Positions 19,487 through 57,478 of a stretch of DNA of 64,000 nucleotides are shown here, piece by piece (position 1 is the stretch's first letter; each line of letters begins with the position of its first letter). Below the pieces are notes generated by a model. That model ran no database searches, was not told where the DNA came from, and saw nothing but the letters and a program-made list of their open reading frames with translations. The DNA is from Azospirillaceae bacterium (GTDB lineage Bacteria > Pseudomonadota > Alphaproteobacteria > Azospirillales > Azospirillaceae): positions 1,325,501 to 1,389,500 of the forward strand of contig JAPWJW010000003.1 in assembly GCA_028283825.1 (NCBI GenBank), written 5' to 3'. The translations under genes and the position numbers were made by a program.

Positions 19487-19600
19487 AGCGGCAAAGCCGC
19501 TTAGCCCGCGACTGCGGGCGCCGGAGTTTTGCGGGGAGCGTCAGCGGACTGCAAAACGAGGACAGCCAAACGGCCGGAGGCCGCGCCCGGCGCCTGAGGG
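19487..19600 (+). repeat. Structured intergenic repeat, copy 1 (3' UTR of pth)
   Basis: Core at 19504-19600. Stem A GCCCGC-GACT-GCGGGC; closing stem GCCGG (19520) with CCGGC (19587); stem B GTTTTGC (19526) with GCAAAAC (19551); inner stem GC-GTCA-GC; stem C CGGCC-GGA-GGCCG (19571-19583); 3' end CTGAGGG. An accessory hairpin AGCGGC-AAA-GCCGCT lies just before it (19487-19501). It starts 34 nt after the pth stop, in the same orientation. Confidence 0.75.
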
Positions 19601-19607
19601 CCAAGCA

Positions 19608-19835
19608 TCAAGCCACGATATCCAGCAGGCGCTGGCTGTTCTCATCCACCGTCTTGGCCACCTTGGTCAGGGCCTTGAAGGTCAGGGCGTCGGTGCTGAG
19701 GCTGACCACGTCCGTCGGGTTCACGCCACCCTGTGACGACGCGATGGCCGTGGCGTCACGATCCACGCGGGCGCTGGCGTTCTGAAGCCCCTGGGTGATG
19801 GCGCTATAGGCGCTGGTGGCGGAAATGCTGCTCAT
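19608..19835 (-). CDS. Small flagellar rod/hook-like protein
   Basis: 75 residues. The N-terminus (SSISATSAYSAITQGLQNAS) and the C-terminus (LTKVAKTVDENSQRLLDIVA) resemble the paired terminal helices of flagellar rod and hook proteins, with almost nothing between them. Such short proteins are common and uncharacterised in alphaproteobacteria. No signal peptide. There are no flagellar genes nearby, so assignment to the flagellum rests only on the helix pattern. It converges on pth, and copy 1 of the structured repeat lies between them. Confidence 0.6.
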   Translation of the reverse strand: MSSISATSAYSAITQGLQNASARVDRDATAIASSQGGVNPTDVVSLSTDALTFKALTKVAKTVDENSQRLLDIVA

Positions 19836-19888
19836 GGCCTGGAATATAGCATCGACGCCGCGCCTGGACCAGGGGTGGACCCGCAGCC

Positions 19889-20443
19889 TCAGTTTTGCGG
19901 CGGCACCACCAGCAGAGTGACCGTGGCGGCCTGGCTGTTCGACACCTGTAACTGATAGGTGCCGGCGGCCAGGCCGAAATCCACCACCTTGTGGATGCCG
20001 GAACAGTTGGGGCCGTGACGGTGGCTGGTGGAGTCCAGCGACTTGGCCCCCGCTACCACATCGATCCAGGCCCCGCCGTCCAGCGCGATGCGATAGGGGC
20101 CGGCCACCGTCACCGTGAAGGCCACGATGCCGGCATAGGTCTTGTCCTCCGCCGGCTTGGGCGGGGCCACAGCCAGCGTCACATCTTCCTTGGGCGCCAG
20201 CGTCACCCGCGCCGGCGTGCCGGGCGTCACGGCAGGTACGGCGTCACCACCCTTGGCCGCAGTCACCGGCACGGCGGTCAGGCCCCAGGCCTTCAGATCC
20301 GCCGGCCATTCCACCGCGACGCCCTTGCAGGACGGATCGGTCGGCGCGGCCGCCTTTTCGGCCATGCCCTGGGGGACCGCCTGCGCCCACGCGGACGAGG
20401 CCGCCGTCAACCCGATCGCCAGAACCAACGCGCAGCGCTTCAT
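19889..20443 (-). CDS. Secreted beta-rich protein with HRHGPNCSGIHK motif, function unknown
   Basis: 184 residues from ATG 20443, where GGGAAGGGAAG provides a clear ribosome site. A signal peptide ends near SAWAQA. The mature protein looks beta-rich (AFTVTVAGPYRIALDGGAW; AGTYQLQVSN) and contains a conserved-looking stretch HRHGPNCSGIHK, with three His and one Cys that could bind metal. Similar proteins have sometimes been labelled homogentisate dioxygenase, but nothing here supports that enzyme. Periplasmic or extracellular. Divergent from the DUF2987-like gene. Confidence 0.65.
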   Translation of the reverse strand: MKRCALVLAIGLTAASSAWAQAVPQGMAEKAAAPTDPSCKGVAVEWPADLKAWGLTAVPVTAAKGGDAVPAVTPGTPARVTLAPKEDVTLAVAPPKPAEDKTYAGIVAFTVTVAGPYRIALDGGAWIDVVAGAKSLDSTSHRHGPNCSGIHKVVDFGLAAGTYQLQVSNSQAATVTLLVVPPQN

Positions 20444-20619
20444 CACCCGCTTCCCTTCCCCAATGCCAGCCACATCGCTGTATATCCGCTGATATAACGG
20501 CCCGACATGACACCCTGGCAAGGAAATCGGCGCGCCACCGATAATGGCAAGGGACAACCTTAGCGAAAAAACGCCGCCATCCGGCCCTATCCCCGCAGCA
20601 TCCCCACCCGGTACTATCC

Positions 20620-21435
20620 ATGCGGCCGATGGGGCTGTCTTTTGGGGAACTGGATATCTTGGCCAAGGATCCGCACGCGCGGCTGCGCGCCGCAACGCTC
20701 GCCACCGCTCTTTGCCTACTCGTGCCCCGCCTGGCCATGGCCCAGGCGGCGGAGCAGCCTGCCGCCGAGCCTGCCCAGGAAATGACGGTGACCGCCAAGC
20801 AGGAGTTCGGCCACACCTCCTACCGCGAATTGGCCGACACGCTGAAGGTGCTGGACCAGCTGGGGAACAACGGCCATCACCTGCGCCTGGCGCTGAAGGT
20901 GATGTTCCAGGAGGGAAAGACCGGCCCCCAGCCCATCGAAATCTGGGCGGTGCATGATGGCCGGGAAGAAGCGATCGAATCCACCCCCGACGGCTATTTC
21001 CACCTGCCCTACCGGCCCGATTGGGCGGCGGCGGATGCCAAGCTGGTCAGCAACCAGGCCAAGGACACGCTGAGGGCGCATCTGGCGCTGGAGGTGGAAA
21101 CCGAAGACGGCCAGCCGGTGCCCTATGTCGAACTGCGCCAGGGCGCCAAGCTGCTGGACCGGGCGATCGAAGAATTCGTCGGCCCGGTGATGGGCTTCAT
21201 CGTGCCGGGCATCGACCAGTTCACCTTCAGATGCGGACCGGAGGACCATTGCCACGTCACCGCCAGCCTGGACAGTGGCGACGCGCTGGAGGCCGACGAC
21301 AAGGGCCAACCCATCCTGGAATTCAGCCGCAAGCTGGAACGCCGCAACCCCGGCCTGCGCCTGGCCGTCGCGGCCGACGAGGGCACGACCGGTCCCACCC
21401 ATCTCTACGCCGTGCCGGTGGCGCATCTGTTCTGA
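20620..21435 (+). CDS. Exported DUF2987-like protein
   Basis: Up to 271 residues from ATG 20620. The true start is uncertain because no ribosome site is clear and the hydrophobic signal segment (LATALCLLVPRLAMAQA) begins only at about residue 26. The body resembles DUF2987 proteins: YRELADTLKVLDQLGNNGHH, FHLPYRPDW, then PVMGFIVPGIDQFTF. These are periplasmic proteins of unknown role. Divergent from the secreted beta-rich protein; followed closely by the convergent toxin gene of TA module 2. Confidence 0.6.
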   Translation: MRPMGLSFGELDILAKDPHARLRAATLATALCLLVPRLAMAQAAEQPAAEPAQEMTVTAKQEFGHTSYRELADTLKVLDQLGNNGHHLRLALKVMFQEGKTGPQPIEIWAVHDGREEAIESTPDGYFHLPYRPDWAAADAKLVSNQAKDTLRAHLALEVETEDGQPVPYVELRQGAKLLDRAIEEFVGPVMGFIVPGIDQFTFRCGPEDHCHVTASLDSGDALEADDKGQPILEFSRKLERRNPGLRLAVAADEGTTGPTHLYAVPVAHLF

Positions 21436-21459
21436 GACCTGGCACCCGACGCGGACATG

Positions 21460-21768
21460 TCAATCCGGCGTGCGTGGATATCTGCCCGGGATGTCGGCCG
21501 TCTCATCAAAAAGGGCGAGAACCAGCGGCGGCTGGGCGCGATAGGCAAACCAGTAGCGGTGCACCTTGATCCAAGCCACATCGGCCTGAGTCAGCCATGG
21601 GTAAGGCCGTGGTGCCGGCAGGCCCTTGGCCGGCTCGTTCAGGATGAAACGCTCAGCCTCATCCACAGCGTCCGCCAGTTTCTCCAGGGCCTGCAGCCAC
21701 AACCGCTCTTCAAAATAGTCCTGAAGGGACGCGAGTTGGGCCTCGGCCTCAGCGGAGAAGTGGATCAA
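21460..21768 (-). CDS. RelE/ParE-type toxin (TA module 2)
   Basis: 102 residues, clearly related to the toxin at 413-709: both contain GLPAPRPYP, an aromatic strand YWxAYxAxP and ADIPxR at the end. ParE/RelE fold with N-terminal helices (FSAEAEAQLASLQDYFEERL). The ATG overlaps the antitoxin stop by four bases. The target (gyrase or mRNA) is not predictable. The shared features with module 1 suggest that one arose from the other or that both belong to one local family. Confidence 0.78.
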   Translation of the reverse strand: MIHFSAEAEAQLASLQDYFEERLWLQALEKLADAVDEAERFILNEPAKGLPAPRPYPWLTQADVAWIKVHRYWFAYRAQPPLVLALFDETADIPGRYPRTPD

Positions 21769-21974
21769 CGCCGGACGGGGCCGCGCTCGGCGGCATAAGC
21801 GTCCGCCTCTTCCGACCGCGCTTTCAACCGGGCAATGCCCTCGCGCAGACGGGCCCGCACGGTCTCAGCCGGAACGACCCTGCCGGCAGCGACATCAGCC
21901 TCGGCGCGCGCCAAGGATTCGCCCCACGCGCGGGCGATATGGTTCATGCGGTCCTGATCGGAGCGTTCGGTCAT
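21765..21974 (-). CDS. Antitoxin of TA module 2
   Basis: 69 residues if started at ATG 21974, or 60 from ATG 21947, which has AGGA five bases upstream and may be the real start. It is a charged helical protein (AEADVAAGRVVPAETVRARL, then REGIARLKARSEEADAY) with the same spacing of V-P-x-E-x-V-x-A-x-L-R as the antitoxin at 706-900. It overlaps the toxin by four bases. Expected to bind and neutralise the toxin. No DNA-binding domain is evident. Confidence 0.65.
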   Translation of the reverse strand: MTERSDQDRMNHIARAWGESLARAEADVAAGRVVPAETVRARLREGIARLKARSEEADAYAAERGPVRR

Positions 21975-22067
21975 AAAGGAATGATAGAGGGATTGGCTCC
22001 CGGAATCCATCAACCTTGAGTTAGGGGCGGGACCTTGCGATCCCACCCCCATCCTCAATCAAGGCCC

Positions 22068-23519
22068 TCAAACGAAGCCGTTGTCCTTGGCGACCTTGGC
22101 GTACCAGTGGCCGCTGTCCTTGATGGTGCGCTTCTGGTTGTTGGCATAATCGACGTAGACCAGGCCGAAACGCTGGGTGTAGCCCTGCGCCCATTCGAAA
22201 TTGTCCATCATGCTCCACGCGTGGTAGGCGCGGACGGGGGCGCCGTCCTTGATGGCACGGGACAAGGCGGCGAAGTAGGCCTTCATGTAGGTGATGCGCG
22301 CCTCGTCCTTCACGTGGCCGTTCACCAGCGGCGTGTTGTAGGAGGCGCCGCTTTCCGTGATCTCGATCGGGCGGTTGCCCACCACCTTGGCCATGCGCAC
22401 CAGGGTGTCGTGGAAACCGTCGGGATCGATGTCCCAGCCGATGTCGGTCTTGGCGTGCGGCCCCTCGCCCCACTGGTGGTCGGTGTTCAGACCGGGGACG
22501 CCATTGCCCTCGGGCTTATCCGCCACCACCCAGCGGGTGTAGTAGTTGAGGCCGACGAAATCGTAGTCGCCGCGCATGGTCTTCTCGTCGCCCGATTGGA
22601 AGCCCAGCAGGGCGTCGCGCTGGTCGGCCGGCAGCACGTCGGGGTAGGTGCCGTCCAGCACCGGCTGCAGGAACCACAGGTTCAGGAAGCGGTGATACCG
22701 CTCGGCCGCGGCCTTGTCGGCTTCGCTGTCGGTGCGTGGCACCATGTTGGCGACGTCGCAGACGCTGCCGACCTCCAGCTTCGGGTCCACCGCCTTCAGG
22801 GCGCGGAAGGCCTTGCCCTGGCTGAGATTCACCACGTGAGTGGCCTTCAGCATCTGCAGCGGGTCCTTGTGACCCGGCGCGAAGATGCCTTCCCAATAGC
22901 CCAGGTGGGTGAAGGTCTTGGGCTCGTTCAGGATGGCCCAATGCTTGATGCGGTCGCCCAGGGCGCGGCCCATGATGTCGGCATATTCGGCCAGGCGGTC
23001 GGCGGTGTCACGGTTGGTCCAGCCGCCGGCGTCATCCAGGGGCTGGGGCAGGTCCCAGTGGTAGAGCGTGACCAGCGGGCGGGCGCCCGCCTCCAGCGTC
23101 GCGTCGGTCAGGCGCTTGTAATAGTCCAGGCCGGCCTGGTTGACCGCCCCCTTGCCGTCCGGCTGCACCCGCGACCAGGCGATGGAGTAACGATAGCTCT
23201 TCAGGTTCAGCTGGCGGATGAGGGCCGCGTCTTCCCGGTACTTGTGATAGCTGTCGCAGGCGACGTCGCCCGTGTCGTTGTTCTTGATACGGCCGGGCTG
23301 GCGCACAAAGGTGTCCCAGATGGACGGGCCCTTGCCATCGGCGTTCCAGCCGCCTTCCACCTGGTACGCGGCGGTGGCCGCCCCCCACAGGAAGTCCTTG
23401 GGAAAGTCCACCTTGGCGGCCTTGGCGGCGGCGAAGGCCATGCGCCCGGTCATCCCCCCGGCAGCGCCCAGGGCGGCCATGGCGGCCGTGCCCTGTAGCA
23501 GGGCGCGACGATTGATCAT
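22068..23519 (-). CDS. Tat-exported GH1 beta-glucosidase
   Basis: 483 residues. It begins with a twin-arginine signal (NRRALLQGTAAMAALGAAGG), unusual because most GH1 enzymes are cytoplasmic. The GH1 barrel is intact: FLWGAATAAYQVEG, the acid/base Glu199 in LNEP, NYYTRW, and the nucleophile Glu389 in ITESG (canonical ITENG, with Ser for Asn). It should cleave beta-linked glucosides or cellobiose in the periplasm. No transporter or regulator gene is adjacent. The upstream 478 bp are non-coding. Confidence 0.93.
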   Translation of the reverse strand: MINRRALLQGTAAMAALGAAGGMTGRMAFAAAKAAKVDFPKDFLWGAATAAYQVEGGWNADGKGPSIWDTFVRQPGRIKNNDTGDVACDSYHKYREDAALIRQLNLKSYRYSIAWSRVQPDGKGAVNQAGLDYYKRLTDATLEAGARPLVTLYHWDLPQPLDDAGGWTNRDTADRLAEYADIMGRALGDRIKHWAILNEPKTFTHLGYWEGIFAPGHKDPLQMLKATHVVNLSQGKAFRALKAVDPKLEVGSVCDVANMVPRTDSEADKAAAERYHRFLNLWFLQPVLDGTYPDVLPADQRDALLGFQSGDEKTMRGDYDFVGLNYYTRWVVADKPEGNGVPGLNTDHQWGEGPHAKTDIGWDIDPDGFHDTLVRMAKVVGNRPIEITESGASYNTPLVNGHVKDEARITYMKAYFAALSRAIKDGAPVRAYHAWSMMDNFEWAQGYTQRFGLVYVDYANNQKRTIKDSGHWYAKVAKDNGFV

Positions 23520-23997
23520 GCTGTCTACACTCCGTTCCTAGTGGCGCCTCATCCCCCCGGTTCCCCGCCTATGGGCGCTCATCCCACCACGGATCCGGTA
23601 TCGGCTGTCAGGCAAGGCCAGGGCGTGCGCCGGTGTATGCGGTTCCACACGAGTGGGAACGGTACCCAGCTTTGGTTTTTGTCATGCCCTTCCTCCCGGA
23701 ACGACTTGTAACCCATCACGGACAACGCTGTCACACGCGATGTGACCGCTAGCACGCCGGAAGATGCCCTTGTCCGATGGGCTTATATTTAACAATCCCG
23801 TCTTGGAAATTTAATTGCCTGCGCATGGCACCTTTGTGAAAGAGGTGTCTGCATCACGTGGCGTGAAGGTTGTACACGCTTCCGGCCTTATGCATTAATC
23901 TCGCGACTGAATTTGGGGAAAGACCGCACATGACCCTGCCGGGTTCGCCTCGCATCGTCTTCTTGGGGAATCTACCCCTTTGGTGTGGAGGGGACCG
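23520..23997. other. Divergent intergenic region between GH1 gene and cysT
   Basis: 478 bases without a credible gene. GC falls sharply at about 23780-23900. An imperfect dyad with arms GTTCCAC and GTGGGAAC lies near 23642-23660 on the GH1 side. The AT-rich part probably contains the promoter of the cys operon. The sequence TGTGACCGCTAGCA (23741-23754) only weakly resembles a LacI-type site. No terminator or RNA gene was recognised. Confidence 0.4.
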
Positions 23998-24873
23998 GTG
24001 ACGGCCGCGGCGGCGGCCACCGGGGCCAAGGGCGCTCGCCGGGGTCAGGGTTTCCTCGCCCCCACCATCCTGCCGGGTTTCGGCACGGCCTTCGGTTTCA
24101 CCCTTTTCTACCTGTGCCTGATCGTCCTGATCCCGCTGGGCCACATGGCATTGGTGGCGGCCGGTGTGGGCTGGACCAAGTTCTGGTCCATCACCCTGGC
24201 GCCGCGCGTACTGCACGCCTTCTACATCAGTTTCGGCTGCGCGTTCGTGGCGGCCCTGGTCAACGCCGTGTTCGGCCTGATCGTGGCCTGGGTACTGGTG
24301 CGTTATCGCTTCCCCGGCCGGCGCATCATCGACGCCATGGTCGACCTGCCCTTCGCCCTGCCCACGTCGGTCGCCGGCATCGCCCTGACGGCGATCTACG
24401 CCCCCAACGGCTGGATCGGTTCCTTCGCCAAGGCGGCGGGGTTCAAGATCGCCTTCACGCCGCTGGGCATCGTCATCGCCCTGGTGTTCGTCGGCCTGCC
24501 CTTCATCGTGCGCACGGTGGAACCGGTGCTGCAGGATCTGGATGCCGAGGTTGAGGAGGCGGCGGCCTCATTGGGCGCCACCCGCTGGCAGACCTTCACC
24601 AAGGTGCTGCTGCCCGCCATCCTGCCGGCGCTGCTGACCGGCATCGCCCTGGCTTTCGCCCGCGGCGTGGGCGAATACGGTTCCGTCATCTTCATCGCCG
24701 GCAACATCCCGGCGGTGTCGGAGATCGTGCCCCTGCTGATCGTGGCGCGGCTGGAACAGTTCGACTACGCCGGCGCCACGGTCATCGCCACGGCCATGCT
24801 GGCCGTCTCCTTCCTCATGCTGCTGGGCATCAATTTCCTGCAGCGCTGGACCCGGTCGCGCCATGCCCGCTGA
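23998..24873 (+). CDS. cysT: Sulfate/thiosulfate ABC transporter permease CysT
   Basis: 291 residues from GTG 23998, which follows GGAGGGGACCG; a TTG at 23980 would overlap that site. Six membrane helices and the permease EAA loop [21 protein letters not shown], which docks on CysA. It forms the channel with CysW for uptake of sulfate and thiosulfate across the inner membrane. It overlaps cysW by 11 bases, and cysA follows. The operon contains no periplasmic binding protein gene (sbp or cysP), which must be encoded elsewhere. Confidence 0.93.
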
Positions 24874-43922: not shown

Positions 43923-44052
43923 CAACGGCATGAGCCGACACTCATGCCGTTGTAGGACGCGACCGCGTCCGCCGGAGCTTTCCGGGGAGCGAAGCGGACT
44001 GGAAAGCGAGGACAAGCCCAGCGGGCGGATGCCCGCGCCCGGCGCCTGAGGG
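43923..44052 (+). repeat. Structured intergenic repeat, copy 2, with accessory hairpin
   Basis: Accessory hairpin CAACGGCATGAG / CTCATGCCGTTG (43923-43952), then the core at 43955-44052. Stem A GGACGC-GACC-GCGTCC; closing stem GCCGG (43971) with CCGGC (44039); stem B GCTTTCC with GGAAAGC; inner GC-GAA-GC; stem C GCGGGC-GGAT-GCCCGC (44021-44036); 3' end CTGAGGG. It lies in the 3' untranslated region of the PfpI-family gene, after its terminator. Confidence 0.78.
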
Positions 44053-46759: not shown

Positions 46760-47737
46760 GTGCGCCGCGACGTGGATGACCCATCGGCCGTGTGGACGGA
46801 GGGCGGGTCCCGCCTGCTGGCGTATGGCCACCCGGACGCCACCGGCCCCGTGCTGCTGTTCGTGCCCTCGCTGGTCAACCGGGGTTATGTGCTGGACCTG
46901 TCGGCGCGCAAAAGCCTGGTGCGCTGGCTGGCGGGCCAGGGCCAATCCGTCGGCGGTTTCCGCCCCTATCTGCTGGATTGGGGATCGCCAGGGGCGGAGG
47001 AGCGCGGGTTCGACCTGACCGACTATGTCGATGGCCGCCTGTCACGCGCCATCGACGCCGTGCGCGCCCTGGCGCCCGACCGGCGGCCGTCCCTGATCGG
47101 CTATTGCATGGGCGGCACCCTGGCGGCGGCGGCGGCCGTCCTGCGGCCTGACCAGGTCTCATCCCTGGTGCTGCTGGCGGCACCCTGGGATTTCCACGCC
47201 GACGACCAGGCGGCGGCCTTGCGTGCGGCATCCCTGCTGCCGCTGATGGAACCGGCGCTGACCTGGCTGGGGGAAATGCCGGTGGACATGATCCAGTTCC
47301 TGTTCGCCGGCCTGGATCCCCTGCTGGCCCTGCGCAAGTTCAGCCGCTATGCCGGCCTGGTTCCGGAAGGCCAGGAGGCGCAGGACTTCGTGGCACTGGA
47401 GGACTGGCTGAACGACGGCGTGCCACTGGCGGCCGGCGTGGCGCGCGAATGCCTGGGCGGCTGGTACGGCCGCAACGACCCGGCGGCAGGGTCCTGGCGC
47501 ATCGGCGACCAGGTCATCGACCCGGCCACGCTGACCCTGCCCACCCTGGCCATCATCCCGGCCCGCGACCGCATCGTGCCGCCGGGTGCCGCCCGCGCCC
47601 TGGCCCAGGCCATCCCCGGCGCCGACATGCTGGAACCCCGCCTGGGCCACATCGGCATGGTGGTCAGCGCCGGCGCCCCCACCGAGGTGTGGGCGCCGCT
47701 GGCCGACTGGCTGGTGAGTAACGCGCACGGCGTTTGA
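46760..47737 (+). CDS. PhaC-like polyhydroxyalkanoate synthase / alpha-beta hydrolase
   Basis: 325 residues from GTG 46760, but homologous-looking sequence in the same frame extends upstream to about 46592 (ALAQAIDRETRRRLDTFLTG), so the real start is earlier or lost by frameshift. PHA synthase features: FVPSLVNRGYVLDL, the Cys box GYCMGG (a lipase-like GxCxG), the acid in IIPARDRIVPP and the His in GHIGMVV. It polymerises hydroxyacyl-CoA to PHB on granules. It lies beside phaR, as in relatives. Much shorter than class I PhaC (about 590 residues). Confidence 0.78.
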   Translation: MRRDVDDPSAVWTEGGSRLLAYGHPDATGPVLLFVPSLVNRGYVLDLSARKSLVRWLAGQGQSVGGFRPYLLDWGSPGAEERGFDLTDYVDGRLSRAIDAVRALAPDRRPSLIGYCMGGTLAAAAAVLRPDQVSSLVLLAAPWDFHADDQAAALRAASLLPLMEPALTWLGEMPVDMIQFLFAGLDPLLALRKFSRYAGLVPEGQEAQDFVALEDWLNDGVPLAAGVARECLGGWYGRNDPAAGSWRIGDQVIDPATLTLPTLAIIPARDRIVPPGAARALAQAIPGADMLEPRLGHIGMVVSAGAPTEVWAPLADWLVSNAHGV

Positions 47738-47751
47738 ACGGCCCCGTTCAA
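47734..47751. terminator. Hairpin at the end of the phaC-like gene
   Basis: TTGAACGG / CCGTTCAA with a 2-base loop; the stem includes the stop codon. No T-run. Confidence 0.4.
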
Positions 47752-47758
47752 GCGCCGT

Positions 47759-47868
47759 CCCTCAATCGCCGGGCGCCGGCATTCGCCGGCTTGGCTCACG
47801 GGCCTGACCGGCCCGGGCCGGCCGTCGCCGACCTGCCTACGGCATGAGCATCATCTCATGCCGTAGGC
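47759..47868 (-). repeat. Structured intergenic repeat, copy 5 (diverged, minus strand)
   Basis: Read on the minus strand: an accessory hairpin of 14 bp (GCCTACGGCATGAG / CTCATGCCGTAGGC, 47835-47868), a GGGCC-GGTCA-GGCCC hairpin in place of stem B, then stem C GCCGGC-GAAT-GCCGGC, GCCCGGCG and TTGAGGG. The last ~35 bases are nearly identical to copy 3. It starts seven bases after the GST stop, in the same orientation as that gene. Confidence 0.6.
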
Positions 47869-50609: not shown

Positions 50610-51938
50610 GTGTCCATCCATGTGCCCTGCTATAACGAGCCGCCGCACATGGTGATCGAGACCTTGAACGCGCTGGCGGCCATGGACTACCCCAACTTCG
50701 AAGTCCTGGTGATCGACAACAACACCAAGGACGAGGCCGTCTGGCGCCCGCTGGAGGAATACTGCGTCAAGCTGGGGCCGCGTTTCCGCTTCTTCCACCT
50801 GCCGCGCTGGCCGGGCTTCAAGGGCGGGGCGCTGAACTTCGGCCTGTCGGTCACGGCACCGGACGTGGAGGTGGTGGGCGTCATCGACAGTGACTATCAG
50901 GTCACGCCCGATTGGTTGTCGGCCACCATTCCCTATTTCAAGCGGCCGGAAGTGGGCTTCGTGCAGTCGCCGCAGGACTACCGCGACTGGTCGGACGACA
51001 CCTTCAAGTCGATGATCAACTGGGAATACCAGGGCTTTTTCCATATCGGCATGATCCAGCGGAACGAGCGCAACGCCATCATCCAGCACGGCACCATGAC
51101 CCTGGTGCGCAAGAGCGCCCTGGACGGCGTGGGCCGCTGGGCCGAGTGGTGCATCTGTGAGGATTCCGAACTGGGCCTGCGCCTGTTCGAGGAGAAGCTG
51201 GAGGCGGTCTACATGCCCGACAGCTTCGGCCAGGGCCTGGTTCCCGACAGCTTCGCCGGCTACAAGACCCAGCGCTTCCGCTGGGCCTATGGCGCGGTGC
51301 AGATCCTGAAGCGCCATTGGCGCGAGATGACGCCGGGCGCCACCAAGCTGACCTTCGGGCAGAAGTACCACTTCATCACCGGCTGGCTGCCCTGGTTCGC
51401 AGACGCCGCCCACATGGGCTTCGTCGTCGGCGGCATCGTCTGGTCGCTGGGCCTGCTGCTGCTGCCGCAGTGGATCGAGTTCCCGCCCACCGTCTTCATC
51501 CTGCCCACGCTCAGCGTCTTCTTCTTCAAGGTGCTGTGCGGCCTGTGGCTGTATGGCGAGCGGGTGAAGTGCCGCTTCATCGACAAGCTGGGCGCCGCCG
51601 TGGCCGGCATGGCCCTGACCCACACCGTGGGCCGCGCCGTGTGGGTGGGCCTGTTCACCAAGGGCCGCCCCTTCGTGCGCACGCCCAAGTGCGAGGACCA
51701 GCCCGCCCTGGTGCAGGGCATCCTGCACGCCCGGGAAGAGGTGGGGCTGATGCTGGGCCTGTGGCTGGCCGCCGCCGCCATCGCCCTACTGAAGGGCAGC
51801 GACAACCGCGACGCCTATGTCTGGTCCACCATGCTGGTGGTCCAGTCCTTCCCCTATATCGCGGCCCTGTTCCTCAGCATCCTGAACGCCCTGCCCAAGC
51901 CCCGCGGCACGGAGGCCGCCCCCGCCGCAGCGGAGTGA
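50610..51938 (+). CDS. GT2-domain C-terminal half of NdvB-like beta-glucan synthase
   Basis: 442 residues from GTG 50610. Family 2 glycosyltransferase: VSIHVPCYNEPPHMVIETLN, the DxD site in VIDSDYQV, ICEDSELGLR and the QRFRW motif, followed by five or six TM helices. It should polymerise glucose from UDP-glucose across the inner membrane. The start lies inside the first beta-strand of the domain; reading upstream in this frame gives ATNAPKVSIHVPCYNEPP, so the natural N-terminus is in the GH17 half. Its 3' untranslated region carries copy 3 of the structured repeat and a terminator. Confidence 0.87.
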   Translation: MSIHVPCYNEPPHMVIETLNALAAMDYPNFEVLVIDNNTKDEAVWRPLEEYCVKLGPRFRFFHLPRWPGFKGGALNFGLSVTAPDVEVVGVIDSDYQVTPDWLSATIPYFKRPEVGFVQSPQDYRDWSDDTFKSMINWEYQGFFHIGMIQRNERNAIIQHGTMTLVRKSALDGVGRWAEWCICEDSELGLRLFEEKLEAVYMPDSFGQGLVPDSFAGYKTQRFRWAYGAVQILKRHWREMTPGATKLTFGQKYHFITGWLPWFADAAHMGFVVGGIVWSLGLLLLPQWIEFPPTVFILPTLSVFFFKVLCGLWLYGERVKCRFIDKLGAAVAGMALTHTVGRAVWVGLFTKGRPFVRTPKCEDQPALVQGILHAREEVGLMLGLWLAAAAIALLKGSDNRDAYVWSTMLVVQSFPYIAALFLSILNALPKPRGTEAAPAAAE

Positions 51939-51974
51939 AACCAGCGGCCTAAGATTCCCTCTTGGGTCGCCATA

Positions 51975-52073
51975 GGCCCCGACTGGGGCCGCCGGACCTT
52001 TTCGGGGAAGCCGTAGGCGGACTGAAAAGGGAGGAAGCCCAGCCGGCGAATGCCGGCGCCCGGCGACTGAGGG
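51975..52073 (+). repeat. Structured intergenic repeat, copy 3 (3' UTR of glucan synthase)
   Basis: Stem A GGCCCC-GACT-GGGGCC; closing stem GCCGG (51991) with CCGGC; stem B CCTTTTC with GAAAAGG; inner GCC-GTA-GGC; stem C GCCGGC-GAAT-GCCGGC; 3' end CTGAGGG. It starts 36 nt after the stop codon and is followed directly by an intrinsic terminator, so it is part of the transcript. No accessory hairpin is seen. Confidence 0.78.
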
Positions 52074-52080
52074 ACGAAAT

Positions 52081-52120
52081 AAAGGGCGGCGGCGCCAAAA
52101 CCGCCGCCCTTTTCCTTTTG
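52081..52120 (+). terminator. Intrinsic terminator after glucan synthase
   Basis: GGGCGGCGG (52084-52092) and CCGCCGCCC (52101-52109), followed by TTTTCCTTTT; flanking A-runs make it bidirectional. Confidence 0.85.
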
Positions 52121-52252
52121 GGGCTCCCGTGACCAAGCCGTGCCCCGGTTGTACGACTCGAGACTCAGGCTCGCGATTCGCGGTATGGTTGGGTGATAAG
52201 AGCAAGAACGCCCCAAAACCGCCGACAGGCAAGAACCGCCGACAGGGATGAC

Positions 52253-52720
52253 ATGGTCAAGACACACGCGCTGGCCCCCCAGCCGCCCAATGCCGAAGCC
52301 GACATCCAGGGCGTGCTGGCCGCCAACCGCCGCTTCTATCGCGCGTTCGCCGAGCGGGACGTGGCCGACATGGAAAAGCTGTGGGCCAAGGAGTGCGAGG
52401 TGCGATGCGTCCATCCCGGCTGGCCGGCCCTGTCGGGGCGGGAGCAGGTGATGCGCAGCTGGCGGGAACTGCTGAGCAACCCTGGGGCGCCGGGCGTGCG
52501 CCACCAGGGCGAACAGGTCAGCGTCTTCGGTGACCTGGGCTGGGTGGTGTGTGAGGAATTCGTGGCCGAAACCGCCCTGGTGGTGACCAACATGTTCATG
52601 CGTGGCGGCGATGGCTGGCGCATGGTCCACCATCAGGCCACGCCCATCTCCTCCATCAACGCGTTCGAGGACGTCAGCGGGTTCGAAGGTGCCGGCGGCC
52701 TGCCCCCCACCCTGCACTGA
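52253..52720 (+). CDS. SnoaL-like / nuclear transport factor 2 family protein
   Basis: 155 residues from ATG 52253 (AGGGA five bases upstream). NTF2-like alpha+beta barrel of the SnoaL_3 type: IQGVLAANRRFYRAFAERDV, CEVRCVHPGWPALSGREQVM, SWRELLSNPGAP, then ending MVHHQATPISS. Such small proteins act as isomerases or ligand-binding proteins; no catalytic assignment is possible. It is alone between the glucan synthase and an alpha-galactosidase gene. Confidence 0.85.
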   Translation: MVKTHALAPQPPNAEADIQGVLAANRRFYRAFAERDVADMEKLWAKECEVRCVHPGWPALSGREQVMRSWRELLSNPGAPGVRHQGEQVSVFGDLGWVVCEEFVAETALVVTNMFMRGGDGWRMVHHQATPISSINAFEDVSGFEGAGGLPPTLH

Positions 52721-52789
52721 CCGCTTCCGGGGATTTTCCCCAGGCGCCCGCCGGCCGTTAAGCATTGCGGCCCCGATTCTTTTCCGTAC

Positions 52790-52803
52790 TGTTATCGCTA
52801 ACA
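52790..52803. promoter_or_regulatory. LacI-type operator before the alpha-galactosidase gene
   Basis: TGTTATCGCTAACA, a near-perfect dyad with central CG, typical of LacI/GalR family sites, 19 bases before the start codon. No LacI gene is in the window. Confidence 0.55.
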
Positions 52804-52821
52804 ATACGGAGGAAATCCCCA

Positions 52822-54219
52822 ATGCCACCCACGCCGTCCCGCTGGATATCGTCCGCGTTCCTGGCCGTCCTCTTGGCGACCGCCCTGCCCGCAGCGGCCC
52901 GGACGCCGCCCGCAAGCGCAGCGGCGCCCCTGGCACCCACGCCCCCCATGGGCTGGAACAGCTGGGACGCCTATGGCCTGACCATCGATGAGACGGATTT
53001 CAAGGCCAACGCCACGGTCCTCGCGGGCCTGCGCCCCTATGGCTGGACCTACGCCGTGGTGGATGAGGGCTGGTACATGGCCGACCCGTTCGCCGACAAG
53101 GTGCCGGCGCGGAAGTACCAGTTGGACGGGAACGGCCTGCTGATCCCGGCGCCGGGACGCTTCCCCTCCGCCGCCGATGGCAAAGGCTTCAAGCCGCTGG
53201 CCGATTGGGTGCATGCGCAGGGGCTGAAGTTCGGCCTGCACATCGTGCGCGGCATTCCCAAGCAGGCGGTGGACCAGAACCTGCCCATCGCCGGCACATC
53301 CTTCCGCGCGGCCGACGCCGCCGACACGTCCGACACCTGTCCCTGGGATGATGGCGACTACGGCATCAAGGACACACCGGCCGGCCAGGCCTATTACGAT
53401 TCCATGATGGCGCTGTACGCCGGCTGGGGCCTGGATTTCCTGAAGGTCGACTGCATCGCCGACCATCCCTACAAGGTCAGTGAGATCCGGCAGATATCCG
53501 CCGCCATCGCCAAGACCGGCCGGCCCATCGCGCTCAGCCTGTCGCCCGGGCCCACCAGCCTGGCCCACGCCGATGAGGTGGGACAGCTGAGCCAGATGTG
53601 GCGCATCTCCAACGATGTCTGGGATGGCTGGACCTTCCCCCACCCCAAGCCCAACGACGATTTCCCCCGGGGGGTCGGCGACGCCTTCGACATCGTGGCC
53701 GGCTGGGCCCCTCACGCCGGCGATGGTCACTGGCCGGACGCCGACATGCTGCCCTTCGGCACCCTGGCACCCCATCCAGGCTGGGGCGACCCGCGCCAGT
53801 CGCGCCTGACGGCGGAGGAGCAGCGCACCCAGTTCACCCTGTGGGCCATCGCCCGCTCGCCCCTGATCCTGGGCGCCAACCTGACAAAGCTGGACAATGC
53901 CACCCGGGCGCTGATCACCAATCGTGAGGTCATCAAGGTCAACCAGACAACCCGGGAAAGCCACCCGGTGACGGACCTGCCGGCCGGGTTCGACAAGGCG
54001 CGCGCCTGGGCGGCCACGGGCGCCGACGGCACCCGTTACCTGGCGGTGTTCAACCTGGGGGCCAAGACGGCGACGCTGACCGCCGCCTGGGACCGCCTGG
54101 GCCAGCCCCAGGGCCGGCACGTCGCCCGCGACCTGTGGACAGGCCGCCACTTGCCGGGTTCGGAGAAGCTGACCGTCACCCTGCCGGCGCACGGCAGCGC
54201 GCTGTACGCGGTGGAGTGA
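52822..54219 (+). CDS. Exported GH27 alpha-galactosidase
   Basis: 465 residues from ATG 52822, with CGGAGGAAA upstream. A signal peptide (SAFLAVLLATALPAAARTPP) is followed by the GH27 barrel: PPMGWNSWDAYG, YAVVDEGWY, the nucleophile Asp210 in LDFLKVDC and the acid/base region MWRISNDVWDGW, then PDADMLPFG and a beta C-domain. It cleaves terminal alpha-galactosyl residues, for example from plant galactosides or galactomannan, in the periplasm or outside. A LacI-type operator overlaps its promoter region, so sugar-dependent regulation is likely. Confidence 0.92.
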   Translation: MPPTPSRWISSAFLAVLLATALPAAARTPPASAAAPLAPTPPMGWNSWDAYGLTIDETDFKANATVLAGLRPYGWTYAVVDEGWYMADPFADKVPARKYQLDGNGLLIPAPGRFPSAADGKGFKPLADWVHAQGLKFGLHIVRGIPKQAVDQNLPIAGTSFRAADAADTSDTCPWDDGDYGIKDTPAGQAYYDSMMALYAGWGLDFLKVDCIADHPYKVSEIRQISAAIAKTGRPIALSLSPGPTSLAHADEVGQLSQMWRISNDVWDGWTFPHPKPNDDFPRGVGDAFDIVAGWAPHAGDGHWPDADMLPFGTLAPHPGWGDPRQSRLTAEEQRTQFTLWAIARSPLILGANLTKLDNATRALITNREVIKVNQTTRESHPVTDLPAGFDKARAWAATGADGTRYLAVFNLGAKTATLTAAWDRLGQPQGRHVARDLWTGRHLPGSEKLTVTLPAHGSALYAVE

Positions 54220-54236
54220 ACAACCACGGACGAGCC

Positions 54237-54264
54237 GCTACGCCGGGTTCATTCCCGGCGTAGC
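54237..54264. terminator. Bidirectional hairpin between convergent genes
   Basis: GCTACGCCGGG (54237-54247) and CCCGGCGTAGC (54254-54264) with loop TTCATT; it covers the stop codon of the phosphatase gene. Confidence 0.55.
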
Positions 54265-55016
54265 AGCTTATCGGCCAGCACGCTGGCCCACCAGCGGGTC
54301 ATGAAGGTCTTCTTGAAGGCCGGCGGATCGTAGACCTCATCCACCCAGCGATAGAAGGCATCGACACTGGGATCGATGCCCTGTCCCTGGGCGTAGGCCA
54401 CGAAGGTCTCGAAGAAATGATCCAGGATGCCGGTCTTGGCATGGCGCAGGTGGCCGTACTTGGGGCTGAGCTGACGCAACGCCGTTTCCAGCGGCACCCC
54501 CTCATGCACGAACAGGTACAGCACGCTCATGAAGCCGACGCGGTCGGACCCGGCCTTGCAATGCATCAGGACGGGATATTCCGCCTGGCGCCAGACTTCC
54601 CGAGCCTGGTGCAGGATGTGCTTCTTCGGCGCATCGCGGGAATTGACGGCGAAGTCCACCAAGGTGACGCCGTGGCGGGCGCAAGCCTCCGCCTCCAGCA
54701 CCCAGGACCCGCAATTGTCGCGCCGGCCGCGCAGGTTGATGATGGTGCGCACGCCCTGGCGCGCCGCCAGGCGCACATGGCCCGGCGTCGGCTGGCTGGA
54801 ACGGTACAGGCGGGGGGAAATCTTGAACTTGTTCTTATAGATCATGCGGATGAAGGCATGATCCTTGAAGAAGCTGTTCAGGTAGCGCTTGACGCCCCGG
54901 ATCTGGTTTGGGGGCCTCGGGTTGGGGGGGGCCGGTGTGGGTTCGGTGGGCGGCGCCCCGCGGCCGACCGCCGGCATGTCATCCACCGTCACGGCCTCCA
55001 GCCGATAGTCCGTCAT
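54249..55016 (-). CDS. Dual-specificity/tyrosine phosphatase-like protein
   Basis: 255 residues from ATG 55016 (ORF could extend 11 residues). After a Pro-rich N-terminus, the fold reads PRLYRSSQPTPGHVRLAARQ, GVRTIINLRGRRDN, then the P-loop HCKAGSDRVG with Cys153 and Arg159, the CX5R signature. It removes phosphate from proteins or lipids. It resembles cytoplasmic/cell-envelope bacterial enzymes of the DSP type (alphaproteobacterial set); the substrate is unknown. Convergent with the galactosidase gene. Confidence 0.85.
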   Translation of the reverse strand: MTDYRLEAVTVDDMPAVGRGAPPTEPTPAPPNPRPPNQIRGVKRYLNSFFKDHAFIRMIYKNKFKISPRLYRSSQPTPGHVRLAARQGVRTIINLRGRRDNCGSWVLEAEACARHGVTLVDFAVNSRDAPKKHILHQAREVWRQAEYPVLMHCKAGSDRVGFMSVLYLFVHEGVPLETALRQLSPKYGHLRHAKTGILDHFFETFVAYAQGQGIDPSVDAFYRWVDEVYDPPAFKKTFMTRWWASVLADKLLRRE

Positions 55017-55075
55017 CGCACAAGCTTGTCCCAAGCAGAAATAAGGCAAAGGGCCGGCATATCGACCCGCACAGG

Positions 55076-55091
55076 CCCCCTATATAGGGGG
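55076..55091. promoter_or_regulatory. Palindrome upstream of phosphatase gene
   Basis: CCCCCTATATAGGGGG, a perfect 16-bp palindrome 60 bases before the phosphatase start. The central TATATA could overlap a -10 element. Confidence 0.45.
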
Positions 55092-55202
55092 TTTGGCGTG
55101 CCGCGGCGAGGGGTCGTGCGCGCATGGGCGGAAAGACCGCAGCCTTGCAAAAGCACAATCAGGGGCTGAGGGGGGAGGGAATCGCCCAGCGAGCGGCAAG
55201 GC

Positions 55203-55691
55203 CTATCGCGCGAAAGACCGGCCACGGCTGGCGTCCAACCGGTCCAGGCGGTCGAAGAAGGGGGCGATCACCGCCCGGTCTTCCTTGGTTTCCCGATCCA
55301 GGGCGGCGCGATCATGCTCCGTCCAATGGACCAGGGTGGCCATTTCCTGGCGGTCAAAAGCGCTGAGCCCCGAACCGGCCGCCAGTTTCTGCGCCGACGC
55401 GCCCTTTTCCGCCGGCTCCTCCGCCGCACGGGCGGCCTGGCGGGCGGCCAGGACCCGTTGGGTCATCTGGCGCCATTGCCGTTCATCGAAGCCGTACTTG
55501 GCAAGCAGCAGCGCCGCCTGCGGCCCGGGATGGGCCAGCAGGACGAAGGCCGACTGTCCGTCGCCCGGCGAGGATGCGACCAAGGCCTCGGCCGCCGAGA
55601 CGTACCGGCCGACCTCACCCGCATCCAGGTGCTCATGCGCCAACATGGGCGCGGATATCATCAGAACCACTAACGCGGCTGCGAAACGCAT
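55203..55691 (-). CDS. Small exported protein, function unknown
   Basis: 162 residues from ATG 55691; GGGGG lies six bases before it, inside a small hairpin (CGTTTG-CCCC-CAAACG) that could hide the ribosome site. A signal peptide (AAALVVLMISAPMLAHEHL) is followed by a charged helical domain (LLAKYGFDERQWRQMTQRVL; TEHDRAALDRETKEDRAVIA). No family is recognised. Stands alone upstream of the phosphatase gene. Confidence 0.7.
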   Translation of the reverse strand: MRFAAALVVLMISAPMLAHEHLDAGEVGRYVSAAEALVASSPGDGQSAFVLLAHPGPQAALLLAKYGFDERQWRQMTQRVLAARQAARAAEEPAEKGASAQKLAAGSGLSAFDRQEMATLVHWTEHDRAALDRETKEDRAVIAPFFDRLDRLDASRGRSFAR

Positions 55692-55929
55692 CGTTTGCCC
55701 CCAAACGTTCGCGCGCCAAATGTGATCGTTTCTTATAACGGGCACGCACTGGCATTTCCAGCGGAAAGCCGTTTAAGCCCGCATTAAAATTGAAGAAATG
55801 TGGCGCCGTTATGGCCGCCGGCCGCATGTCCGCGAACTCTTCCGCAGGGCGCGAAAGGCCAGGCGTGCGGCGGGATGGCGCATGCCTCTTGCAGGATGCC
55901 ATGGCGTGCCCTAGGGTCCCGTCGCACCC

Positions 55930-57285
55930 ATGGGTTTCATTCAGGATAGACGCAGCCCCGTGTCCCGCTTCACCGCCCGTCTTCTCGCCGCCGGCACCGC
56001 TTTGGTCCTGGCTGGCACCGCCGTTGCCCAGACCGCCCCGCAGTCGGCCCCCGAGGGCCAGACGCCTTCGGGCAATGCCGATGGCGGCGGGCTGATCCTG
56101 CCGGGCACCGTCAGTTCCGGTTCCAGCGTCGCAGCGCCCCAGCAGGCGCCGGTCGCCGCCCCGCAGGCGCCCATCGCCGGCCCGGCCACCGCCCCCGCCA
56201 TGGGCCCGGCCGCCGGTCCGCGCGCGACCGGCCCCGCCCCTGCCCCGGCACAGGGCGCCGCCGGCCCGGCCAAGGTGGGCACCACCGTGGGCAACTGGGA
56301 GGTGCATCCCCAGGTCTATACCGACGGCAGCTTCAAGCTGTGCGAGGCGCAGGCCAATTTCGACAACAACCTGGCGCTGGTCTTCCTGGCCCTGCCGGTC
56401 CCGGCGTCTGAGCAGCAGGCGCACAAGCTGCCGCCCAAGATCATCAACCTGGTGATCGGCGTCCCCGGCGCCAACATGCAGCCCGGCCAGGGCCCGGCCA
56501 TCAAGCTGAAGCTGGACGGCAAGCTGGAACAGACCCGCGGGTCGGAAGTCATCCAGCCCAACGCCATCATGACCGGTTTCGACCCGGCCGACGCCAACTT
56601 CACCAAGGCGCTGGCCACCGCCAACCGGCTGGAGGTTTCCACCCCGGGCGATACCGCCACCTTCGTGCTGAAGGGTGGCACCAAGGCGTTCAAGGATCTG
56701 AACACCTGTATCGACCAGGCCGCCGCCGGCAAGCTGCAACTGCCGGCCCCGCCGCCGGCCATTCCGCCGGCTTTCGCCAAGCTGCTGATGGATGCCGGCC
56801 TGCAGGACGCGCACCCTCTGCCGGTGGACAAGATGGCGCCGAAGGACCGCCCCGGCGACTTCGCCTGGACCGTGCAGAAGGACGTCGTCGGCGCCCTGCG
56901 CTCAGTCGGCCTGAAGCCCGAGGCCGGCGACCTGGAAAAGGTCAGCCAGAACTATATGGACAGCCTGTCCAAGGCCTGCCAGGGCACCTACACCCCCACG
57001 CTGGGCAAGGTGGAGAAGCTGCTGCAGATCGACCTGCGGACGGCGACCGCCAGTTGCAAGAGCGACAAGGGCGACTATTACGCCAACCTGATCATGTACC
57101 TGACCAAGGACCGTCAGCTGTTCATCATCAGCCACGAAGCGCCGGCCGCCAGCAAGGCCGTGGCCGACAATGCCGGCAACGGCATCGCCAAGGTGCTGCG
57201 CGTCAAGGCGAACGAGCCGCCGCCGGCCCAGCCCGCCCAGGGCCAGGCCCCGGCACCCGCCGCCGGCCCCCGCAAGCAGCAGTAA
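55930..57285 (+). CDS. Secreted Pro/Ala-rich protein with two Cys, function unknown
   Basis: 451 residues from ATG 55930, or about ten fewer from GTG 55960; neither start has a clear ribosome site. A signal peptide (ARLLAAGTALVLAGTAVAQT) is followed by a low-complexity Ala/Pro/Gly linker (to about residue 110), then an invasion-associated-locus-B-like beta domain (GNWEVHPQVYTDGSFKLCEA; CGxxC-type spacing is absent) and a helical C-terminal half ending in a Pro/Ala tail. Likely periplasmic; the role is unknown. A strong terminator and then copy 4 of the structured repeat follow. Confidence 0.7.
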   Translation: MGFIQDRRSPVSRFTARLLAAGTALVLAGTAVAQTAPQSAPEGQTPSGNADGGGLILPGTVSSGSSVAAPQQAPVAAPQAPIAGPATAPAMGPAAGPRATGPAPAPAQGAAGPAKVGTTVGNWEVHPQVYTDGSFKLCEAQANFDNNLALVFLALPVPASEQQAHKLPPKIINLVIGVPGANMQPGQGPAIKLKLDGKLEQTRGSEVIQPNAIMTGFDPADANFTKALATANRLEVSTPGDTATFVLKGGTKAFKDLNTCIDQAAAGKLQLPAPPPAIPPAFAKLLMDAGLQDAHPLPVDKMAPKDRPGDFAWTVQKDVVGALRSVGLKPEAGDLEKVSQNYMDSLSKACQGTYTPTLGKVEKLLQIDLRTATASCKSDKGDYYANLIMYLTKDRQLFIISHEAPAASKAVADNAGNGIAKVLRVKANEPPPAQPAQGQAPAPAAGPRKQQ

Positions 57286-57310
57286 ACATACCGCCTCGGC
57301 GGACGGACGA

Positions 57311-57343
57311 CGGGAGGGGCCAAAACCCCTCCCGTTTTCTTTT
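57311..57343 (+). terminator. Intrinsic terminator of the secreted protein gene
   Basis: CGGGAGGGG (57311-57319) and CCCCTCCCG (57326-57334), loop CCAAAA, followed by TTTTCTTTTG. Confidence 0.85.
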
Positions 57344-57380
57344 GTTCGCCTCAAGCGCCACTCGGCACCAACTATTCCTA

Positions 57381-57478
57381 GCCCGCGACCGCGGGTGCCG
57401 GACCTTTCCGGGGAACGAAGTGAACTGGAAAGGGAGGATAAGCCAAAGCCACGGAGTGGCCGCCCGGCGCCTGAGGGC
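57381..57478 (+). repeat. Structured intergenic repeat, copy 4
   Basis: Stem A GCCCGC-GACC-GCGGGT; closing stem GCCGG (57397) with CCGGC; stem B CCTTTCC with GGAAAGG; inner AC-GAA-GT; stem C GCCAC-GGA-GTGGC (57448-57460); 3' end CTGAGGG. It lies 95 nt after the stop of the upstream gene and after its terminator, before a convergent gene. Confidence 0.78.

What the first reader, a model, noticed from the sequence alone, without database searches (positions are those of the whole stretch)
19487..57478. Family of covarying structured elements in 3' untranslated regions (five copies)
Seen in sequence: four ~98-nt copies (19504, 43955, 51975, 57381) share the order stem A, GCCGGA, stem B around GGGGA..GCGGACT, GAGGA-AGCC, stem C, GCCCGGCG and CTGAGGG. 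All three side stems change sequence while staying paired: stem A GCCCGC/GCGGGC, GGACGC/GCGTCC, GGCCCC/GGGGCC; stem B GTTTTGC/GCAAAAC, GCTTTCC/GGAAAGC, CCTTTTC/GAAAAGG; stem C CGGCC/GGCCG, GCGGGC/GCCCGC, GCCAC/GTGGC. Loops such as GAC(T/C) and the single-stranded GAGGA are conserved. The small inner stem also covaries (GC/GC, GCC/GGC, AC/GT). All copies, plus the diverged one at 47759, lie 7-95 nt after a stop codon and in the orientation of that gene. Inference: a conserved 3'-UTR RNA or RNA-like element, perhaps an sRNA source, a transcript stabiliser or a mobile RNA-coding repeat.
Basis: partly seen in the sequence, partly recalled or inferred. Interest (0 to 1): 0.9.

Follow-up and report, generated by a model that had tools for sequence, protein, structure and literature searches.

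The report
Hairpin-rich mobile repeats after genes
A short piece of DNA that codes for no protein and folds into several hairpins, probably with a small knot, has copied itself many hundreds of times into the gaps after genes in this bacterium, and relatives occur in many alphaproteobacteria; it is a jumping repeat with an unusually well-kept fold, not a gene-specific tail.

Summary
The copies are real, and so is the covariation. 'In the orientation of the gene' fails: in tandem gaps 37 copies are sense and 42 antisense. Copies shun divergent gaps and abut stop codons. Sites are filled in one species and empty, inverted or differently filled in others. Full-length relatives have ~24-bp inverted repeats (ATACC...) and a 3-bp TNA duplication (15 of 21 pairs; 13 of 20), so this is a MITE. 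Its core, three hairpins plus a likely pseudoknot AGCCAAG-C-CGCCCGGCGNNTGAGGG, recurs in Rhodospirillales, Acetobacteraceae, Sphingomonadaceae and viral-collection contigs, with stems that change in pairs and constant unpaired bases. No Rfam match, no IS200/RAYT transposase, no parent IS found. Best reading: a non-autonomous DNA transposon carrying a conserved RNA-like fold; what the fold does is open.

The parts
19487..19501 (+). upstream hairpin 0 of copy 1 (AGCGGC-AAA-GCCGCT)
   Evidence: sequence
19502..19600 (+). copy 1, core TAG...TGAGGG (hairpins A, B, C and pseudoknot strands)
   Evidence: R1 hit 102.1 bits; motif scan; G059 holds another variant on the same strand at this site (L093:14928-15022)
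43923..43952 (+). upstream hairpin 0 of copy 2 (CAACGGCATGAG...CTCATGCCGTTG)
   Evidence: sequence
43953..44052 (+). copy 2, core; the best-scoring window copy
   Evidence: R1 hit 129.8 bits; site empty in 5 of 6 relatives, a short derivative on the other strand in G063
47759..47868 (-). copy 5, diverged, minus strand: hairpin 0, A, short-type B, C and TGAGGG
   Evidence: R1 hit 36.8 bits at 47753-47839 -; fold z -6.3; site empty in 5 of 6 relatives, opposite-strand copy in G064
47718..47758 (-). probable downstream hairpin of copy 5 with end GCGCGTTAC; the stop codon of the + gene 46760-47737 lies inside it
   Evidence: reverse complement and translation; assignment is inference
51942..51972 (+). 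imperfect hairpin 0 of copy 3, starting 3 nt after the stop codon of the + gene ending at 51938
   Evidence: sequence
51973..52073 (+). copy 3, core; the only tandem, sense copy of the window
   Evidence: R1 hit 104.1 bits; context
52081..52112 (+). terminator-like hairpin directly downstream of copy 3, so copy 3 would be inside the transcript
   Evidence: consensus match only
57309..57336 (+). terminator-like hairpin between the + gene and copy 4, so copy 4 would be outside that transcript
   Evidence: consensus match only
57379..57477 (+). copy 4, core; ends 8 nt before the stop of the minus-strand gene 57485-58081
   Evidence: R1 hit 107.2 bits; G060 holds an opposite-strand copy (L094:4768-4877 -), G061 a short derivative on the same strand, 4 relatives none

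Best explanation
A family of non-autonomous DNA transposons (MITEs). The full unit is 5'-TACC inverted repeat (itself a hairpin), hairpin A (loop often with GAC), hairpin B, AGCCAAG, hairpin C (loop GGAT), CGCCCGGCG NN TGAGGG (its GGC and GGG pairing back with AGCC and CCC as a small pseudoknot), then a hairpin in the other inverted repeat ending GGTA-3', flanked by a 3-bp TNA duplication. A transposase acting in trans (unidentified; by analogy a DDE enzyme) inserts it at TNA. TGA and TAA are themselves TNA, so an insertion at a stop codon regenerates the stop; together with selection against insertions in promoters and genes this would explain why copies sit just after stop codons in either orientation (inferred). 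The core fold is kept by selection on a single strand, most likely as RNA in read-through 3' ends, where it may act as a harmless, degradation-resistant or insulating tail (inferred, not shown). Shown: copy number, covariation, lack of an orientation rule, differences between species, inverted repeats, TNA duplication, wide distribution. Inferred: enzyme, transcription, role of the fold.
For: 165 hits at E<0.01 in 1,249,600 bases. 2 of 165 in predicted genes; 79 convergent, 81 tandem, 3 divergent, against 25.8% divergent expected, p 3e-17 (the 25.8% was worked out by hand after taking ~130 nt off per copy). 3' end within 20 nt of a facing stop in 82 of 161, null mean 24.4, maximum 37 of 1000 draws. 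Sites of the five window copies are empty, inverted or differently filled in relatives (details in the full report). Inverted repeats: pattern 365+364 matches in G049, 30+45 in G058, backward control 0 in 5 genomes. Duplication: 13 of 20 pairs in G049 share TNA exactly, 5.3 expected from base use (two of 22 pairs left out because they enclose ordinary genes); 15 of 21 in loci of the genome-contig scan, 7.3 expected (hand calculation). 3' domain: 98.5% of cells paired, 103 double changes vs 39 shuffled, slid controls at most 52.6% paired; P1 flips from GCC/GGC to GGC/GCC in 16 copies, 3 broken, of 127 parsed. Sense strand folds better than its complement in 4 of 4 window cores.
Against: No parent IS found: 30 of 50 listed DDE_Tnp_1 matches in 4 genomes show no ATACC ends; the two long TIR pairs in G049 enclose ordinary genes. 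The TIR pattern has only 3+4 matches in own genome, and of 133 strong own copies 75 keep the upstream hairpin, 14 the downstream one and 11 both, so most own copies are not complete MITEs. Filled and empty sites are not clean: up to about 14 nt are replaced. A 104-105-nt form without hairpins B and C also occurs between inverted repeats, 2 of 3 with exact TNA pairs, so those hairpins are not needed in cis for moving. The minimum-energy folds of copies 1 and 4 do not contain hairpin A. The excess of sense-strand wobble is modest (56 vs 31) without two common wobble positions. No transcript data.
Confidence: 0.68

Rival explanations
1. A passive palindromic repeat of the REP/BIME kind with no RNA role: stems stay paired because DNA hairpins correct each other by template switching or because copies exchange hairpin modules.
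For: Linkage between hairpins is very weak (mean r2 0.0138 between, 0.0678 within, permuted mean 0.0068, maximum 0.0126), so stems assort almost independently. At two sites three sister species carry different variants although the surrounding 1.5 kb are 91.7-92.6% identical. 113 of 150 copies have no mismatch in A, B, C. Distribution after genes is the usual one of REPs (PMC3733652, abstract and passages seen).
Against: Unpaired motifs (AGCCAAG, GGAT, TGAGGG) are constant over many genera (these rows were found by a pattern that fixes most of them); the P1 strands of the pseudoknot, ~20 nt apart around hairpin C, also covary in own copies; one wobble position has T-G 34 vs C-A 1, which two-strand DNA hairpins would not favour, though one inherited change could give this.
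Confidence: 0.25
2. REP elements moved by a REP-associated tyrosine transposase (RAYT), given the GTAG next to a hairpin at the 5' end of the core.
For: TAG before hairpin A in the four + window copies and most of 24 aligned copies; dense, intergenic, near stop codons.
Against: Y1_Tnp (PF01797) has no match in own genome (0 of 1) nor in the genus (0 of 7), while the control rings in 5 of 14 genomes. Units are 100-170 nt with a TNA duplication; IS200/IS605-type movement makes none (recalled). TAG is not a rule in the rows from other genera.
Confidence: 0.03
3. A gene-linked 3'-UTR regulatory RNA or sRNA source.
For: Covariation; sense copies in tandem gaps show 23 G-U to 5 A-C departures, antisense copies 12 to 11, as if transcribed copies were kept; copy 3 sits before a terminator-like hairpin.
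Against: No orientation bias (37:42), sites of window copies mostly empty, inverted or differently filled in relatives, tandem arrays. Small counts in the wobble test.
Confidence: 0.04

Closest known systems
Correia/NEMIS elements of Neisseria and ERIC/IRU of enterobacteria (PMC2229807, passages and Table 1 seen)
   Same: Under 200 bp, terminal inverted repeats, TA near the ends, target duplication, many copies, structured if transcribed.
   Different: The review describes repeat transcripts as long stem-loops formed by pairing of the two ends; here a chain of separate hairpins plus a likely pseudoknot with constant unpaired motifs, G+C-rich, and a range over many families of a class.
CIR repeats of Caulobacter and Brucella (PMC2229807, passages seen)
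   Same: Intergenic repeats of alphaproteobacteria with separate stem-loops joined by a linker rather than one end-to-end stem.
   Different: CIR is marked by a conserved GANTC in a terminal loop; the four + window cores have none (copy 3 has GATTC in its upstream hairpin).
GTAG and CGTC REPs (PMC3733652, abstract, passages and the CGTC section seen)
   Same: Palindromic, located after genes, often between tandem or convergent genes.
   Different: REPs are 20-40 bp palindromes, GTAG ones thought to be moved by RAYT; here 100-170 nt and no Y1 transposase in the genus.
IS5/IS1031-type MITEs (recalled, from no call)
   Same: 3-bp TNA target duplication and inverted repeats.
   Different: No IS with matching ends was found; inverted repeats start TACC.

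Membership tests
MITE | short, no coding capacity, high copy number | tested here: met
   149-168 nt full units, 104-105-nt short form; 165 hits in 1.25 Mb of own genome
MITE | terminal inverted repeats | tested here: met
   G049 729 pattern matches, backward control 0; 22 pairs in 20 fetched stretches; but own genome 7 matches only and 11 of 133 strong copies keep both end hairpins
MITE | target site duplication | tested here: met
   TNA identical in 13 of 20 pairs, 5.3 expected, and 15 of 21 pairs, 7.3 expected (hand calculation)
MITE | autonomous parent with the same ends | tested here: inconclusive
   30 loci of 50 listed DDE_Tnp_1 matches looked at, none with ATACC ends; other transposase families not searched, except Y1
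REP with RAYT | Y1 tyrosine transposase in the genome | tested here: not met
   PF01797 0 of 1 and 0 of 7 genomes
REP with RAYT | 20-40 bp palindrome | tested here: not met
   core about 98-101 nt with three hairpins
CIR | conserved GANTC in a terminal loop | tested here: not met
   read by eye in the window copies
Rfam family | score above the gathering threshold | tested here: not met
   window 0 matches; copy 2 only chance-level matches; 8 other loci no match on the element
intrinsic terminator | hairpin followed by a T run | tested here: not met
   cores end GAGGG without T run; separate terminator-like hairpins lie beside copies 3 and 4
ERIC/Correia | family consensus sequence | not tested
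   no consensus of these families was aligned here
structured RNA element | made as RNA | not testable with these tools
   no expression data

The most novel reading that the evidence does not exclude
A class-wide mobile non-coding RNA: a transposon-borne RNA with three hairpins and a covarying H-type pseudoknot, whose unpaired motifs (AGCCAAG, GGAT, TGAGGG) bind a so far unknown protein or RNA of alphaproteobacteria, and which spread because that RNA either helps its own movement or makes insertions behind genes harmless. Its hairpins behave as almost freely reassorting modules, which would imply an unknown way of rewriting both arms of a stem at once.
Probability: 0.3. Interest if true: 0.85.

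Novelty: new variant of a known kind. Interest (0 to 1): 0.62.

Why it matters
If right, a repeat for which I found no description occurs once per 7.6 kb in the sampled 1.25 Mb of this genome (about once per 24 kb in 561 kb of three relatives) and recurs, patchily, through the alphaproteobacteria, so it touches the 3' ends of many genes. It offers a natural experiment: many copies per genome with the same unpaired motifs and varied stems, in both orientations, with filled and empty sites in sister species, to ask whether bacterial MITEs are maintained by what their RNA does. A covariance model would let genome annotation mark it.

Tried and rejected
Rfam at gathering and E-value thresholds: nothing on the element. 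RAYT/IS200 search: absent. Search for a parent IS: in 20 stretches of G049 the TIR pairs 0.7-3 kb apart were two, both enclosing ordinary genes; in own genome one TIR-like site away from the cores by the full pattern and 9 by a loose 12-mer with one mismatch, not examined further; 30 DDE_Tnp_1 loci: none with ATACC ends. One of these (L198, G028) seems to be an IS inserted INTO a copy. A CsrA-sponge idea (many GGA motifs in the Nitrospirillum type) was dropped by eye because short-type copies lack most of them. Haplotype mutual information (A-B, B-C, A-C reached or exceeded by 398, 230 and 64 of 1000 shuffles) had little power with 35, 73 and 54 haplotypes; replaced by per-pair r2. A first alignment mixed strands, because whole-genome loci are not turned; redone. 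Literature searches (open-access PMC library only) found no description of this family; listings only, except PMC3733652 (abstract, passages, one section), PMC10969869 (passages) and PMC2229807 (passages). The 'phylum' draw listed only same-class genomes, so occurrence outside the class is untested. Models R1 and R2 were built from copies picked by similarity to a window copy or by motif, so very diverged copies are undercounted.
Full report
What was checked. A covariance model (R1) from 24 copies finds them at 102 to 130 bits. The fifth, 'diverged' copy is real but on the minus strand (36.8 bits). It includes a perfect upstream hairpin (GCCTACGGCATGAG...CTCATGCCGTAGGC) and folds with z -6.3. 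Rfam 15 has no match.

How many. In 1,249,600 bases of own chromosome (61 stretches, window included, 25 kb of them masked) R1 gives 183 rows up to E 10 and 165 at E<0.01, one per 7.6 kb; by extrapolation about 950 in 7.16 Mb. In 561 kb of three relatives (29 loci of G059, G061, G064) R1 gives 23 rows at E<0.01, one per 24 kb, so density differs between species or regions. The genus is Nitrospirillum: contig C1 of G064 has the length, 2,945,703, of N. viridazoti CBAmc chromosome 1, NZ_CP022110.1.

Where. With genes called by my own script (stops are exact, starts rough, some genes missed), 2 of 165 copies overlap a gene, 79 lie in convergent, 81 in tandem and 3 in divergent gaps. In tandem gaps 37 are sense and 42 antisense after two copies with a neighbour more than 5 kb away (a masked stretch between) were dropped (38 and 43 before). 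The 3' end (TGAGGG) faces a stop codon in 121 of 161 copies and is within 20 nt of it in 82; uniform placement in the same gaps gives 24.4 on average and at most 37. The 5' side of the core faces a stop in 116, 57 of them at 21-60 nt, which is the length of the upstream hairpin plus a few nt (the listing was cut). So both ends of the unit tend to touch stop codons, without an orientation rule.

Mobility. Syntenic stretches of six relatives were compared with the window. Copy 1: G059 holds another variant on the same strand; the stretches of G060, G061, G062 and G064 beside the same minus-strand gene show no copy; G063 was not covered. Copy 2: empty in five, a short derivative on the other strand in G063. 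Copy 3: no copy in the five relatives looked at (G059, G060, G061, G063, G064); in G062 about 2.4 kb of other sequence lies there, without AGCCAAG. Copy 4: none in G059, G062, G063, G064; a full copy on the other strand in G060; a short derivative on the same strand in G061. Copy 5: empty in five, a copy on the other strand in N. viridazoti (G064), where the element's own TAG ends the + gene. G059, G061 and G064 are about 94% identical to each other. Of 34 rows, 22 were followed: seven are filled in one species and empty in the other two; six rows are two sites that carry different variants in all three; four rows are two sites with internal deletions that remove hairpins B and C; five could not be placed (no or distant flanking match). 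Filled and empty sites differ by a few to about 14 replaced nt, so own-genus junctions are not clean.

Ends. In other genera the unit has clear inverted repeats of about 24 bp beginning ATACC. The common pattern has 365 + 364 matches in G049, an uncultured Rhodospirillales bin, 30 + 45 in G058, but only 2 + 1 in G028, 3 + 4 in G000 and 3 + 4 in G064, whose repeats differ from it; the backward control has none in any of the 5 genomes. The flanks read TN|A...T|NA, that is, a TNA duplication around TACC...GGTA. In G049, 13 of 20 pairs have identical TNA, 5.3 expected from base use (two of the 22 pairs enclose ordinary genes, and were left out). In the loci of the genome-contig scan, 21 of 133 motif matches have both ends by a simple pattern and 15 of these 21 have the same N, against 7.3 expected from the base use of those 21 (hand calculation). 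TGA and TAA stop codons fit TNA, which would let an insertion at a stop codon rebuild it; that is inference.

Structure. In 150 own-genome copies the stems hold 3815 Watson-Crick cells, 203 G-T, 32 A-C and 28 other. On 56 copies (A4) 98.5% of cells of hairpin C plus pseudoknot are paired, with 103 double changes against 39 when shuffled, and at most 52.6% paired when slid; nearly all of that variation is in hairpin C. The pseudoknot rests on fewer data: P1 is GCC/GGC in 108 and GGC/GCC in 16 of 127 parsed own copies, with 3 broken (19 further rows had no parsed 5' strand and 4 of the 150 rows were not parsed); P2 is mostly CCC/GGG, with GCC/GGC in 6. P1 and P2 are only 3 bp each, so the pseudoknot is likely, not proven. 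The core folds better on its sense strand than on its complement in 4 of 4 window cores, by about 5-9 kcal/mol, z -1.42 to -2.88 versus 0.05 to -1.95; in copies 1 and 4 the minimum-energy fold pairs the 3' arm of hairpin A elsewhere.

One strand or two. Leaving out two positions with a common wobble, sense-strand G-U departures outnumber A-C 56 to 31 (p 0.0097); in sense tandem copies 23 to 5, in antisense 12 to 11, in convergent 21 to 15. This is what RNA-level selection on transcribed copies would give, but copies are related and numbers small. Hairpins A, B and C are nearly in linkage equilibrium: between-hairpin r2 0.0138 exceeds all 300 permutations (mean 0.0068, maximum 0.0126) but is far below the within-hairpin 0.0678. 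Such weak linkage is unexpected for copies of one master and points to exchange between copies or fast rewriting of stems.

Distribution. This patchiness fits a mobile element. A draw named 'phylum' gave 15 of 398, all listed rows in the same class, so it says nothing about other classes. Sixteen stretches of viral contigs hold the motif, among them three of one 47.9-kb contig with 14 matches together, some in arrays of 108-nt period, and a phage-like contig where a copy lies between two genes (L331). In plasmids one weak match.

Mechanism. It is best described as a MITE with a conserved RNA-like core. The enzyme is unknown: no Y1 transposase match in 7 genomes of the genus and no matching ends among 30 DDE_Tnp_1 loci. 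Since a 104-105-nt form without hairpins B and C occurs between inverted repeats, 2 of 3 with exact TNA pairs, those hairpins seem not needed for movement in cis, which leaves an RNA-level or host-level reason for their conservation. That step is inference.

Relation to the known. It works like Correia/NEMIS and ERIC elements (PMC2229807, passages): small, inverted repeats, target duplication, structured if transcribed. It differs by its chain of hairpins, likely pseudoknot, conserved unpaired motifs and breadth. It fails the tests for RAYT-moved REPs and for CIR. Five literature searches in an open-access library found no description of it; most subscription papers are not in that library.

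Noticed in passing
window 47718-47737, and L105 near 10404: The repeat supplies stop codons: the + gene of the window ends WLVSNAHGV* at a TGA inside the presumed end of copy 5, and in G064 the same gene ends at the TAG of its copy; four relatives without a copy read on into the convergent gene's end (...RS*) and G062 ends ...LA*.
   Followed up: partly
window 56694-56767: A tRNA-Cys gene (GCA) on the minus strand, found by ARAGORN, inside the ORF 55930-57285 called on the + strand.
   Followed up: no
G049 contigs (L145, L149, L153 and others): Near-identical copies sit at the very ends of many contigs, so the repeat seems to break short-read assemblies and to have expanded recently in that population.
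   Followed up: partly
L338 2791-6466, L339 8044-8342, L328 4294-4536: One 47.9-kb IMG/VR contig holds 14 motif matches, some in head-to-tail arrays of 108-nt period; own genome has a threefold array of about 126-128 nt period.
   Followed up: partly
L331 6195-6296: A copy in sense orientation fills the gap between two genes of a phage-like contig; the repeat region of L337 is nearly the same, so phages may carry the element.
   Followed up: partly
L210 6942-7454: In Falsiroseomonas bella two tandem copies lie just beyond the 3' end of a tmRNA gene (Rfam RF01849).
   Followed up: no
L198 around 1100-2100: In G028 an IS with ends like AGAGTGCGTAACAAAACC seems to have inserted into the upstream hairpin of a copy.
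   Followed up: no
L091:10885-10964, L115:8684-8766, L103:6774-6879: Short derivatives lacking hairpins B and C, apparently by deletion between short repeats flanking them; at the first two of these sites a sister species has the full unit.
   Followed up: partly
own-genome copies, alignment A3 columns 56-83 and 57-82: Two neighbouring pairs in stem B are often wobbles (G-T in 113 and T-G in 34 of 150 rows) with hardly any A-C, a possible protein or tertiary contact.
   Followed up: no
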